NCBI RefSeq assembly: GCF_011764585.1
Contig: NZ_AP022853.1
Coordinates: 1 to 64,000 of the forward strand
Source of the DNA: Sulfurimicrobium lacus
GTDB lineage: Bacteria > Pseudomonadota > Gammaproteobacteria > Burkholderiales > Sulfuricellaceae
Reading direction: 5' to 3'
DNA length: 64,000 nt
This document shows, piece by piece, positions 54,881-57,454 of the stretch; within the stretch, counting starts at the first letter, position 1, and each line of letters starts with the position of its first letter. The position numbers were made by a program, and so were the translations under genes. The notes beneath the pieces are model-generated. The model was not told the origin of the DNA, ran no database searches, and was given only the letters and a program-made list of their open reading frames with translations.

Positions 54881-55561
54881 CTAATTTTCCAATTTGAATG
54901 TAATCGGCACTTCAACCCACGCGGTCAACAGCTGACTGCCCCTGCGCGCGGGTATGAAGCGCCATTTCCTGACCGCTTCGAGGGCTGCCTGGTCGAGCGA
55001 ATCCGAGCCGCTGCCGGCCTTCAGCTCGACCCGGCTGCACGAGCCGTCGGTTTGCACCTCCGCGCGCACCAGCACGCGGCCCTCGATGCCGCGCCGGCGC
55101 GCCGCCATGGGATAGGTCGGCGGCGGGTTGTTGAGATAGGCGGCGTGAAAACGCGGCGCTTCCAGCACCGGTTCCGGGGCGCTCCTGGCCGGGGCCTCCG
55201 GAGCCGGCACCGTGGGCGCGACCGGTGCCGCAACGGCAACCTGCTCCAGCGCCGGTTCGGCCTGTTGCGGGAGCGGCGGGCGCGGCGCGGGGTCGGCCTG
55301 TTGCGGGAGCGGCGGGCGCGGCGCGGGGTCGGCCTGGCGAAGCTTCGGCCTGGGTTCCGGTCTGGGCGGTTCGGGCGTATGCGGCACGATCTTGGGCTGC
55401 GGCGGCGGAGGCGGCGCCAGCAGCGCCACCTCGATTACCGGCAACGGCCTGGGCGGCTGGATATCGGCGCGCAAATGGCTCAGTCCATACCAGGCGCCGG
55501 CGTGGGCGAGCAGCACCAAGCCGAGGACCGGCAGCCATTTGTTCGTGTTCCGGTTTCCCAT
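54881..55561 (-). CDS. tonB: TonB energy-transducing protein
   Basis: A 226-aa TonB. An N-terminal helix (about 13-32, LPVLGLVLLAHAGAWYG) anchors it. A proline-rich spacer (about 35-140) holds a 12-residue tandem repeat (ADPAPRPPLPQQ, two copies). The C-terminal domain has YPMAARRRGIEGRVLVRAEV and the end AWVEVPITFKLEN. It carries energy from ExbB-ExbD to outer-membrane receptors. Its start lies 15 bp from the palindromic element at 55577, so its native promoter may be replaced by the element. Confidence 0.93.
   Translation of the reverse strand: MGNRNTNKWLPVLGLVLLAHAGAWYGLSHLRADIQPPRPLPVIEVALLAPPPPPQPKIVPHTPEPPRPEPRPKLRQADPAPRPPLPQQADPAPRPPLPQQAEPALEQVAVAAPVAPTVPAPEAPARSAPEPVLEAPRFHAAYLNNPPPTYPMAARRRGIEGRVLVRAEVQTDGSCSRVELKAGSGSDSLDQAALEAVRKWRFIPARRGSQLLTAWVEVPITFKLEN
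55261..55332. repeat. 36-bp tandem repeat in tonB
   Basis: Two identical 36-bp units run from 55261 to 55332, encoding the proline-rich 12-mer ADPAPRPPLPQQ twice. A third, diverged copy follows (AEPAL side). Such repeats change the length of the periplasm-spanning TonB spacer by slippage. Confidence 0.85.
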
Positions 55562-55576
55562 GGTCGTCAGATAATC

Positions 55577-55743
55577 CTAGGAGCCTGTCGGACTTAAAGT
55601 AAATCGGCTGCAAATCCGCCTGGCCGGTCCATATTCCGCTGCTTTTTTGGGCAATAGAATGACTATTGCCCAAAAAAGCAGCAAAATCTGTCCTCGCCCA
55701 GCCGAATTTTCGCTTCGATTCTTCAAGTCCGACAGGCTCCTAG
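55577..55743. repeat. 167-bp palindromic element with 19-bp terminal inverted repeats
   Basis: Perfect 19-bp ends (ctaggagcctgtcggactt at 55577-55595; its complement at 55725-55743) flank imperfectly complementary arms. A 20-bp perfect central stem (55638-55657 and 55663-55682) encloses an aatga loop. It is MITE-like; TA at both ends may be a target duplication. It fills the tonB upstream region. Its right end supplies the TAG stop of the neighbouring thioredoxin-like gene. Each arm read outward gives a similar peptide (IAQKSS...FKSDRLL). Confidence 0.85.
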
Positions 55744-56228
55744 CGAACAACCTCGCGTTTTATCCAGTTAACCGTTTCCGCTTCGTCCAGCTTGCCGCTT
55801 ACCACGCGCGCTTGGTGGGTGGCGCCGTAAAAATAGGTGTGCGGCAATTCTCCACGCCATCTGCGGTCGATTTCGAAATGCAGGCGCTCCACGAAACTGT
55901 CCGCGAATACCCAGGATTGCGCCTGACCCAGCCCGTATTTATCCAGCACCGCGGCAATCGCCGCGCTTTCCTCCACCGTGTCGGTGGAGACCAGTACCAG
56001 CGGCAGCTGGGGGTATTCCTCAAGCAGTTTGCCCAGCTGTTCCAGGTTGGCCTTGCAATAGATGCAGCTGAGCGACCAGAAAGCGAGAATGAAAGGCTTG
56101 CCGGCATGGGCCGACGCCACCTCCTTCATGCTCCCCGGAACGAACGGTCTGGGCGCCGGGGAGGCGGCTTGGGCGCTGTAGGCCCAGATCCAGATCAGGA
56201 TGAAACCCAGGGTTCGACGCATGTTCAT
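55740..56228 (-). CDS. Thioredoxin-fold exported protein (TlpA-like)
   Basis: A 162-aa protein with a signal peptide (MRRTLGFILIWIWAYSAQAA) and a thioredoxin fold: PFILAFWSLSCIYCKANLEQ with a CIYC redox motif, and a cis-proline region near LPHTYFYG. It should reduce disulfides or deliver reductant in the periplasm. Its start overlaps the Asp-box gene stop by 4 bp, and its stop codon lies in the terminal repeat of the palindromic element, so its C-terminus may have been re-ended by insertion. Confidence 0.82.
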   Translation of the reverse strand: MNMRRTLGFILIWIWAYSAQAASPAPRPFVPGSMKEVASAHAGKPFILAFWSLSCIYCKANLEQLGKLLEEYPQLPLVLVSTDTVEESAAIAAVLDKYGLGQAQSWVFADSFVERLHFEIDRRWRGELPHTYFYGATHQARVVSGKLDEAETVNWIKREVVR

Positions 56229-57454
56229 GGCCTTATCTCCAGCAGTTGCAGGCCGTCTTTTTCCGTTTGCCAGGACAGGAAAGCCTTGTCCTGCTGGCCG
56301 ATCAGCAAGGGATGGTCGCTGGCGCCCGCAGACGCGGCGAGGCGGCGAGCGCCTGACCACGTGGCGCCGCCGTCGACGGAGTGCATTTCCTGAACCAGGG
56401 ATTCCTTGCCGTCGAACTCTTTCCACACCACGAAAACCCGACGCCCCTGGCTCAATACGTCGGGGTGAGCGGCCTGAGCGTCTTCGTTGCCGAACGGGAT
56501 GGGCGCGGAAAAGGTCCTGCCAGCGTCTTTCGTCGATCCGTAGAACAGCCCGTGGCGCTCCGGCCCGTTGTTAAACCAGACCATATGGTAGATTCCGTCC
56601 GCGCCAATGGAGAGGGCGCCGCCGTGATGGGGGCAGCCGCTCACTTCCCAGTCATCGTGGGTTGCGCGCACCACCGTGGCGGGTCCGTCGAGCCGGGCGA
56701 GTGCGAAATCGCGCGTGTTCCGGCCGAAAATGTGGCGCCAGAAAACCACGGGCTTTCCTTCAGGGTCCATTGCCAGCGCCACCCGGCAGCACTCGCAGGA
56801 ATGGTCGGCCAGTTTGACGTTGGGGAGGAAGGAAGCGCCGTTGTCGTCCGAGCGTGCGTAATACACGGCTGCGCCGTTGTATGGCCGGCCTGTTTTCTGG
56901 GCGGCGGAGAGATCGCGCTTGTCCAGCCAGGCAAGATAGACCTGCCCCTGCCCGTTCACGCCCATCGCGTCGAAGCGATGGCTGATGATGTCCGGATTGT
57001 CGTTGACGGTGAGTGGCGGGGAAAATGTTTTGCCGCCATCCACCGAGCGGCTGAAGCGGATGTGGCCGGTCATGGGCTTTTCCAGGCCCTGCGTGTATGA
57101 AACGTAGACCACGCCTTTGCGCACGAGGATCTTGGGGCGGTTCTCGCCTCCCCCCAGGATGTTTTCCGGCTCAAGGTTGATTTTGACCGGCGGGCTCCAG
57201 GTCTTGCCCCGGTCATCGGAATGGTCCGCCCGCAAATAGCCGTCCAGCGCCGATGTCCGCCACAACCGCCCGTTCTCGTCGAACGTGGTGGAGCCGGCGA
57301 ACGAAGGCACGGCCAGCGCCGCTTTCCATTTCGCGTCCCGTTCCGCGGCGGCGGACATGGCTCCATGATCCATGGGAGCCGACTGCCCCGTGGCCTGCGA
57401 CACCAGTCCCAGGCCTGTCGCCAGAACGAACCAGGCCAACGCCGCCTTATGCAT
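56225..57454 (-). CDS. Exported sialidase-fold Asp-box protein with Cys-rich motif
   Basis: A 409-aa exported protein with a six-bladed sialidase-like fold. Five Asp-box motifs are seen: SDDRGKTW (79), SVDGGKTF (137), SDDNGASF (202), TKDAGRTF (308) and SVDGGATW. It has a signal peptide (about 1-23) and an MDHGAM segment. An HSCECC cluster at 218-223 and CPHHGG at 274-279 could bind metal. No sialidase catalytic set was confirmed, so enzymatic function is doubtful. It is coupled to the thioredoxin-like gene downstream and follows the TonB receptor gene upstream. Confidence 0.75.
   Translation of the reverse strand: MHKAALAWFVLATGLGLVSQATGQSAPMDHGAMSAAAERDAKWKAALAVPSFAGSTTFDENGRLWRTSALDGYLRADHSDDRGKTWSPPVKINLEPENILGGGENRPKILVRKGVVYVSYTQGLEKPMTGHIRFSRSVDGGKTFSPPLTVNDNPDIISHRFDAMGVNGQGQVYLAWLDKRDLSAAQKTGRPYNGAAVYYARSDDNGASFLPNVKLADHSCECCRVALAMDPEGKPVVFWRHIFGRNTRDFALARLDGPATVVRATHDDWEVSGCPHHGGALSIGADGIYHMVWFNNGPERHGLFYGSTKDAGRTFSAPIPFGNEDAQAAHPDVLSQGRRVFVVWKEFDGKESLVQEMHSVDGGATWSGARRLAASAGASDHPLLIGQQDKAFLSWQTEKDGLQLLEIRP

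What the first reader, a model, noticed from the sequence alone, without database searches (positions are those of the whole stretch)
55577..55743. Palindromic element with 19-bp terminal repeats and mirror-coding arms
The 167-bp element has perfect 19-bp ends, a perfect 20-bp central stem and TA at its edges. It took over the tonB upstream region and provides the TAG stop of the thioredoxin-like gene. Read outward, both arms give a peptide of the form MGNxxxIAQKSS...FKSDRLL. It looks like a MITE-type element of unknown transposase.
Basis: partly seen in the sequence, partly recalled or inferred. Interest (0 to 1): 0.65.

Follow-up and report, generated by a model that had tools for sequence, protein, structure and literature searches.

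The report
IS1182-type MITE at a stop codon
This is a short, gene-less jumping element, one of many copies found across related bacteria, very probably moved by enzymes of the known IS1182 transposon family, and it sits exactly on the stop codon of a gene; it is mostly ordinary, with an interesting habit of landing at gene ends.

Summary
The element is a real mobile repeat, and its transposase family can be named. Excluding the flanking CTAGs it is 159 bp (55581-55739) with 15-bp inverted repeats GAGCCTGTCGGACTT. The CTAG on each side is best read as a 4-bp target duplication. There are three copies in its own genome, matches in 31 of 99 relatives, and dozens of copies in some. The same ends, beside the same CTAG, bound complete IS1182-family (ISAzo2-like) insertion sequences of about 1.5 kb. 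In a congeneric genome an IS right end matches the MITE end for 23 bp. I found no cognate transposase or full-length partner in the window's own genome, so its copies are probably stranded.

The TAG stop of the thioredoxin-like gene is most likely the pre-existing CTAG target: two of four element-free relatives have it at that place. The "mirror-coding arms" follow from the palindrome. Across relatives, many copies abut a TAG stop codon (25 of 80, against 34 of 317 background CTAGs), partly because insertions inside genes are scarce. A 159-bp IS1182-linked MITE (MITEPye1) and a CTAG-duplicating MITE (MITEPsy1) are already published, so this is a new member of a known kind.

The parts
55577..55580 (.). 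CTAG, left copy of the 4-bp target-site duplication
   Evidence: Sequence; CTAG on both sides of 86 of 119 distinct copies and of 21 of 23 complete IS1182 relatives, one further IS having CTGG on both sides
55581..55739 (.). The element proper: 159-bp MITE with IS1182-type ends, no transposase gene
55581..55595 (+). Left terminal inverted repeat GAGCCTGTCGGACTT
   Evidence: shared with the right end of an IS1182 element of the same genus
55725..55739 (-). Right terminal inverted repeat, exact complement of the left one
55596..55637 (+). Left arm interior (arm B), homologous to but distinct from arm A
   Evidence: Alignment of 34 copies
55683..55724 (-). Right arm interior (arm A)
   Evidence: Alignment of 34 copies
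55638..55657 (+). Left half of the perfect 20-bp central stem; most aligned copies have an imperfect centre
55658..55662 (.). 5-nt loop at the centre of the palindrome
55663..55682 (-). Right half of the central stem
55740..55743 (.). CTAG, right copy of the duplication; read on the minus strand it contains the TAG stop (55740-55742) of the thioredoxin-like gene
55740..56228 (-). Thioredoxin/AhpC-TSA-like gene ending at the element (start codon chosen by eye within the open frame 55740-56426)
   Evidence: PF00578, 26.2 bits against cut-off 26
54881..55561 (-). tonB; its ATG lies 15 bp beyond the left CTAG
   Evidence: PF03544 80.2 bits

Best explanation
[quoted passage not shown] The transposase would recognise the end GAGCCTGTCGGACTT (C for the first G in most of the ISs seen), cut at a CTAG target and duplicate its 4 bp. 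SHOWN: the repeat family, its ends, CTAG on both sides of most copies, element-free CTAGs at the same place in relatives, and full ISs with the same ends and flanks, with a partial IS of the kind in the same genus. INFERRED: that these transposases move it, and that the own-genome copies are now stranded, since no cognate transposase or full-length partner was found there. CTAG is scarce in coding DNA and occurs at C-TAG stop codons, and insertions inside genes are seen less often than CTAG sites there would allow, so many copies stand on stop codons; this copy stands on the stop of a thioredoxin-like gene upstream of tonB. In an mRNA it would form a very stable hairpin; an effect on tonB is possible but not shown.
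For: Multi-copy: 3 in own genome, 32 of 100 genomes including the own; the exact 19-bp end occurs 30 times forward and 34 reverse in G010, 31 and 25 in G006. Partner: of 33 loci holding IS1182 relatives (29, 4 plasmid regions), 23 had both ends (chance pairings in the script's list left out); 21 had CTAG on both sides, one CTGG/CTGG, one CTAG/CCAG, with 1494-1568 bp between (nine of the 23 come from two genomes). One is annotated IS1182-like element ISAzo2. L148's protein scores 301.6 against the cut-off 270 of NCBIfam NF033551, IS1182 family transposase. In G006 (same genus) a transposase gene lacking its start is followed by CTAGGAGCCTGTCGGACTTGAAG, identical for 23 bp to the MITE's right end. 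Element-free CTAG at the same stop: tonB locus in G002 and G005; dut in G016 and G020, map in G016, polA in G018, where G017, G019 and G010 carry the element. CTAG scarce in genes: 96 of 236 CTAGs in 85% of the bases. Stop siting.
Against: Beyond about 23 bp the MITE shows only weak similarity to IS ends: of 24 ends tested against two arms, five gave a score reached by at most 2 of 200 shuffles (best 27 against a mean of 16), so descent by simple internal deletion is not shown. Most of the ISs begin CAGCC where most MITEs begin GAGCC. G010 has 64 exact ends but no transposase match at E<=1e-50, and only 3 of 100 genomes have one. CTAG is a palindrome, so a duplication of it cannot be told from an inverted-repeat extension copy by copy; among the six copies without CTAG on either side none carries identical direct repeats, and the only non-CTAG direct repeat is one IS (L136). 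Of 119 copies 33 lack CTAG on at least one side. Two of four tonB-locus relatives (G003, G004) have no CTAG at the site. No transposition was observed.
Confidence: 0.92

Rival explanations
1. The copies are kept mainly because the hairpin works in RNA (processing, stability or termination between genes), like other transcribed bacterial palindromic repeats; transposition is only its origin.
For: Fold z-score -19. In 34 copies 10 pairs have changes on both sides, against 4.2 +/- 1.4 in shuffles, and 24 such cells against 5.0. Stop-codon siting puts the hairpin at 3' ends.
Against: Arm-to-arm template switching or end homogenisation gives the same paired changes; the window copy's perfect centre, where most aligned copies are imperfect, looks like that. 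No Rfam family reaches its gathering score (seven matches with E up to 1, mostly microRNA models, all far below it); no terminator- or promoter-like site by consensus. No clear orientation bias towards the gene (9 against 17 of 26 one-sided copies picked, p = 0.17). Own copies 2 and 3 have decayed ends.
Confidence: 0.12
2. Insertion is by replacement of an inverted repeat without target duplication, as reported for IS1272, another IS1182-family element; the CTAG would be a remnant of a replaced palindrome.
For: IS1272 is reported to replace inverted-repeat targets without duplications (PMC5678879: abstract and passages).
Against: Element-free G002 and G005 have a plain CTAG close to both neighbouring genes, and there are plain CTAGs at the dut, map and polA stops of relatives. 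L136 has CTGG on both sides as a direct repeat. The Paracoccus IS1182 member ISPse1 is tabled with a value 4 that I take for the direct-repeat length (PMC3281130, passages).
Confidence: 0.05
3. It belongs to a TA-target family such as IS630/Tc1, or to IS5, with C-TA-G flanks.
For: TA inside CTAG; MITEPsy1, tentatively assigned to IS5, also duplicates CTAG (PMC3189936, passages).
Against: The IS630 domain PF13358 occurs in 3 of 22 family genomes and not in the own. In the flanks held of the seven matched loci the only close end (1 mismatch) lies at a neighbouring truncated IS1182 gene. Complete elements with these ends encode IS1182 transposases; the IS5 models match far below their cut-offs.
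Confidence: 0.02
4. The arms encode a conserved small peptide read outward in both directions.
For: Both arms of the window copy read M-G-N...I-A-Q-K-S-S...F-K-S-D-R-L-L. The right-arm frame of about 32 codons has the TTG start in 32 of 34 copies and stays open in 29.
Against: Only 3 of 34 copies carry the start sequence on the left arm; among the 12 right-arm readings printed the frame and ending differ between copies; so short a frame is often open by chance.
Confidence: 0.02

Closest known systems
MITEPye1 of Paracoccus yeei (PMC11578231; section 3.6 read in full, other passages)
   Same: 159 bp, no ORF, inverted repeats resembling those of the IS1182-family element ISPye18, 4-bp direct repeats, intergenic, folds into a long stem-loop
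   Different: Alphaproteobacteria, 18-bp repeats, low copy number (1-3 in the chromosomes); its letters were not available here, so sequence relatedness was not tested
ISAzo2-like IS1182-family elements (Aromatoleum, Dechloromonas, Sulfuriferula and others)
   Same: End sequence nearly the same, CTAG flanks
   Different: About 1.5 kb with a transposase gene; usually C instead of G as first base of the end; little interior similarity
MITEPsy1 of Pseudomonas syringae pv. phaseolicola (PMC3189936; passages read)
   Same: Small MITE that duplicates a 4-nt CTAG (or YTAA) on insertion
   Different: 100 nt, other ends (from ISPsy2, tentatively IS5), transposition seen in trap plasmids
IS1272 (IS1182 family; PMC5678879, abstract and passages read)
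   Same: Same transposase family, palindromic targets
   Different: Reported to replace inverted repeats without target duplication
ISPsy36 (IS1182 family; PMC8027508, passages read)
   Same: 4-bp palindromic target
   Different: Target is GGCC

Membership tests
MITE | Short, without a transposase gene | tested here: met
   159 bp, so at most 53 codons; the longer frames that cross it run into the neighbouring genes
MITE | Terminal inverted repeats | tested here: met
   15 bp perfect inside CTAG
MITE | Multi-copy, dispersed | tested here: met
   3 own copies, 32 of 100 genomes including the own, 119 distinct copies collected
MITE | Target-site duplication | tested here: met
   CTAG both sides in 86 of 119; element-free CTAG at six orthologous places; see the palindrome caveat
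IS1182-family MITE | Ends match an autonomous IS1182 element | tested here: met
   transposase over the IS1182 cut-off
IS1182-family MITE | Moved in trans by that transposase | not testable with these tools
   No experiment; no cognate transposase found in the own genome
IS630/Tc1-type MITE | Ends match an IS630 element | tested here: not met
   None of the seven IS630-domain loci found in 22 family genomes is bounded by these ends in the flanks held
IS1272-type inverted-repeat replacement | No target duplication, target palindrome lost | tested here: not met
REP/RAYT repeats | Mobilised by a RAYT (Y1) transposase | not tested
   Not searched

The most novel reading that the evidence does not exclude
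The CTAG specificity of this IS1182 group makes the MITE a mobile 3'-end module: it settles on TAG stop codons without altering the protein, can give two convergent genes that shared one CTAG a separate stop each, and adds a strong hairpin to transcript ends that cells have put to use.
Probability: 0.12. Interest if true: 0.5.

Novelty: new member of a known kind. Interest (0 to 1): 0.3.

Why it matters
It names the probable mover of a repeat that is common in Sulfuricellaceae and some other Betaproteobacteria. It also gives a worked example of how a 4-bp target that is scarce in coding DNA lets a transposon accumulate at gene ends with little damage. Annotators can mark these copies instead of calling short spurious ORFs.

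Tried and rejected
Plasmid and phage collections by DNA: no match at E 0.01; three short chance-level matches at E 10. Viral contigs by pattern: 11 stretches; some carry the CTAG-flanked end, one (L095) beside what I read by eye as an IS1182 3' end, others look like unrelated coding hits. IS630 as mover: rejected. Descent of the arms from IS ends: weak and inconclusive. RNA-family membership and terminator/promoter consensus: nothing. Mirror-coding peptide: rejected. Very-short-patch repair (recalled idea) as the reason for CCAG-type end changes: Vsr is found in 10 of 22 family genomes, own included, but not in G010, so unsupported there. My first stop-codon impression (15 of 32 copies, includes one with non-coding GC3, L021) was weakened by the control in G010 alone (7 of 31 against 24 of 236, p = 0.067). 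In either data set alone the excess over non-coding CTAG is not significant (p = 0.44, 0.11); pooled it is (p = 0.009), and it rests on my own gene caller. The protein extraction in the script missed most loci and was not used.

Full report
WHAT IS THERE. The 167 bp at 55577-55743 have perfect 19-bp inverted ends beginning CTAG, a perfect 20-bp central stem and near-complementary arms. The minus strand folds at -113.6 kcal/mol, z = -19. Nearly the same sequence occurs at 91% and 88% identity at two more places in the own genome, 232525 and 583322. Matches at E <= 0.001 are found in 32 of 100 genomes, the own included, so in 31 of 99 relatives, some of them weak. The exact 19-bp end occurs in 14 of 22 genomes of the family, the own included: 30 times forward and 34 reverse in G010, 31 and 25 in G006. 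From the loci that I gave to the script I collected 119 distinct copies of 122-244 bp; two size classes dominate, about 160 and about 199 bp excluding the CTAGs. The plasmid and phage collections hold none at E 0.01.

THE PARTNER. A truncated gene in G004 (L089) stands behind the same end. Its protein led to a 440-residue frame in G065 and from there to 29 loci in named genomes and to many plasmid records, of which I fetched four regions. Of these 33 loci 23 have both ends, once the chance pairings in the script's list are left out. The ends read (C/G)AGCCTGTCGG(A/G)CTT with variants, 1494-1568 bp apart; 21 have CTAG on both sides, L136 has CTGG on both sides, L146 has CTAG and CCAG. Nine of the 23 come from two genomes (Dechloromonas SSD3, Aromatoleum buckelii), so they are not all independent. 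The Aromatoleum aromaticum plasmid copy is annotated as IS1182-like element ISAzo2, and L148's protein passes the NCBIfam IS1182 cut-off (301.6 against 270). In G006, same genus as the window, a transposase gene lacking its first part, near a contig start, is followed by an end identical to the MITE's right end for 23 bp. The first 2600 bases of that contig (L253) are identical to L152, titled Sulfuricella sp. isolate STA_15, which places the window in or near Sulfuricella (Sulfuricellaceae; inference from the kinship column). L146 (titled Sulfuriferula multivorans) carries a MITE-like copy and a full IS on one contig. A transposase of this group at E <= 1e-50 is found in 3 of 100 genomes (G006, G011 in two pieces, G065) and not in the own. 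In the own genome, with up to two mismatches, the 16-base end occurs only at the MITE copies and once alone at 437790.

TARGET AND INSERTION SITE. CTAG stands on both sides of 86 of 119 copies. In the window it occurs 29 times against 228 expected from base composition and 48 from a second-order model (the 29 include the two at the element). At the tonB locus the four relatives that I fetched lack the element. In G002 and G005 the place reads CTAG and, read by eye, that TAG is the stop of the thioredoxin-like gene; in G003 and G004 there is no CTAG. So in the window the TAG stop most likely predates the element and was duplicated with the target. The tonB ATG is aligned in all five sequences. 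In these relatives tonB follows the thioredoxin-like gene closely; here the element separates them. Further element-free C-TAG stops at places where another genome carries the element are dut in G016 and G020 (element in G017), map in G016 (element in G019) and polA in G018 (element in G010). In L011 a copy abuts another element end across a single CTAG. Because CTAG is its own complement, a duplication cannot be proved copy by copy; L136's CTGG pair and the empty sites are the main support.

STOP CODONS. Among 32 copies with at least 900 bp on both sides, 15 have an open frame of at least 100 codons ending at the boundary TAG; one of these (L021) has a non-coding composition. Homologues of four such products (dut 21, map 6, polA 2, DUF47-like 1 in the 30 loci held) all end at the same residue, with TAA, TGA or TAG, 26 of them without the element there, so these are native gene ends (in one search the script had resolved only 16 of the 30 because it read one strand). 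With a simple gene caller, 18 of 49 copies in 60 fetched loci stand on a stop (five more had no CTAG, three loci showed no element, and three copies lay too near a locus end), against 10 of 81 background CTAGs in the same loci (p = 0.002). In G010 it is 7 of 31 against 24 of 236 (p = 0.067). Pooled it is 25 of 80 against 34 of 317; counted against non-coding CTAG alone, 25 of 73 against 34 of 183, p = 0.009, while each data set alone is not significant (p = 0.11 and 0.44). Insertions inside genes are scarce in G010: 1 of 31 with both boundaries inside a called gene and 4 more with one boundary inside, against 96 of 236 CTAGs (p = 1e-5 for 1 of 31; 0.0096 for 5 of 31); in the other loci 6 of 49 against 38 of 81. 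The simplest reading is a CTAG target plus loss of insertions that break genes. Some copies have a stop on both sides (L296, L310, L333; one in L240), as expected where convergent genes shared one CTAG.

STRUCTURE AND EVOLUTION. In 34 aligned copies (of 57 with about 160 bp, near-identical ones dropped) the two arms are distinct and each is conserved. Pairing is kept in 93.6% of cells and 10 pairs have changes on both sides, against 4.2 in shuffles. Selection on pairing, end homogenisation, or arm-to-arm copying could all give this. The window copy has a perfect centre where most aligned copies have an imperfect one, with changes that make the right half match the left; local template switching is the likely cause (inference). 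The short right-arm frame is open in 29 of 34 copies, which I do not take as evidence of coding.

COMPARISON WITH THE LITERATURE. MITEPye1 is 159 bp, IS1182-related, with 4-bp repeats and a long stem-loop (PMC11578231, section 3.6 read; passages). ISPse1 of the IS1182 family is tabled with a value 4 that I take for the direct-repeat length (PMC3281130, passages). ISPsy36, IS1182 family, targets GGCC (PMC8027508, passages). MITEPsy1 duplicates CTAG or YTAA (PMC3189936, passages). IS1272, IS1182 family, is reported to replace inverted repeats without duplication (PMC5678879, abstract and passages). A MITE often shares only its borders with its IS (PMC3852290, passages). My searches were: IS1182 with MITE (12 papers), IS1182 with CTAG (two), insertion sequence with CTAG, stop codon and target site (seven), ISAzo2 (one), miniature inverted-repeat with stop codon, insertion and CTAG (six), Sulfuricella with transposable element (one), IS1182 family with target site duplication (two). 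No listed title or start of abstract describes this element; I opened six of these papers (those cited here) and not the others. The library covers open-licence papers only.

VERDICT. A real MITE, very probably of the IS1182 family and stranded in this genome, inserted at a native CTAG stop codon. New member of a known kind, modest interest.

Noticed in passing
L315, L328, L016 and others: End changes from CTAG are skewed: read inward, 16 ends are CCAG and 5 are CTGG, and three copies are CCAG/CCAG inward on both sides, which simple target duplication does not explain.
   Followed up: partly
G010, G006 and G012 loci such as L064, L311, L316: A second size class of about 199 bp with the same ends, probably a subfamily with an extra stretch inside one arm.
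   Followed up: no
L024, L025, L211: A sub-branch in which both arms changed together just inside the ends (left ACTTATGATG or alike, right CCCCATAAGT or alike), keeping the pairing.
   Followed up: no
window 55261-55332: Perfect tandem duplication of 36 bp in the proline-rich spacer of tonB (ADPAPRPPLPQQ twice).
   Followed up: partly
G000:C1:1039435-1040829 (L085, L115): A 577-residue frame in the own genome with distant similarity (39% over 49 query residues) to the IS1182 N-terminal query; the end scan found no GAGCCTGTCGGACTT-type end in these loci.
   Followed up: partly
L095, L099, L100, L103 (IMG/VR contigs): The CTAG-flanked end appears in contigs classed as viral, in L095 beside what looks like an IS1182 3' end: possible carriage by phages or bacterial contamination.
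   Followed up: no
G010: A near-complete MITE-rich genome (64 exact ends) without a detectable cognate transposase, so copies can outlive their IS.
   Followed up: partly
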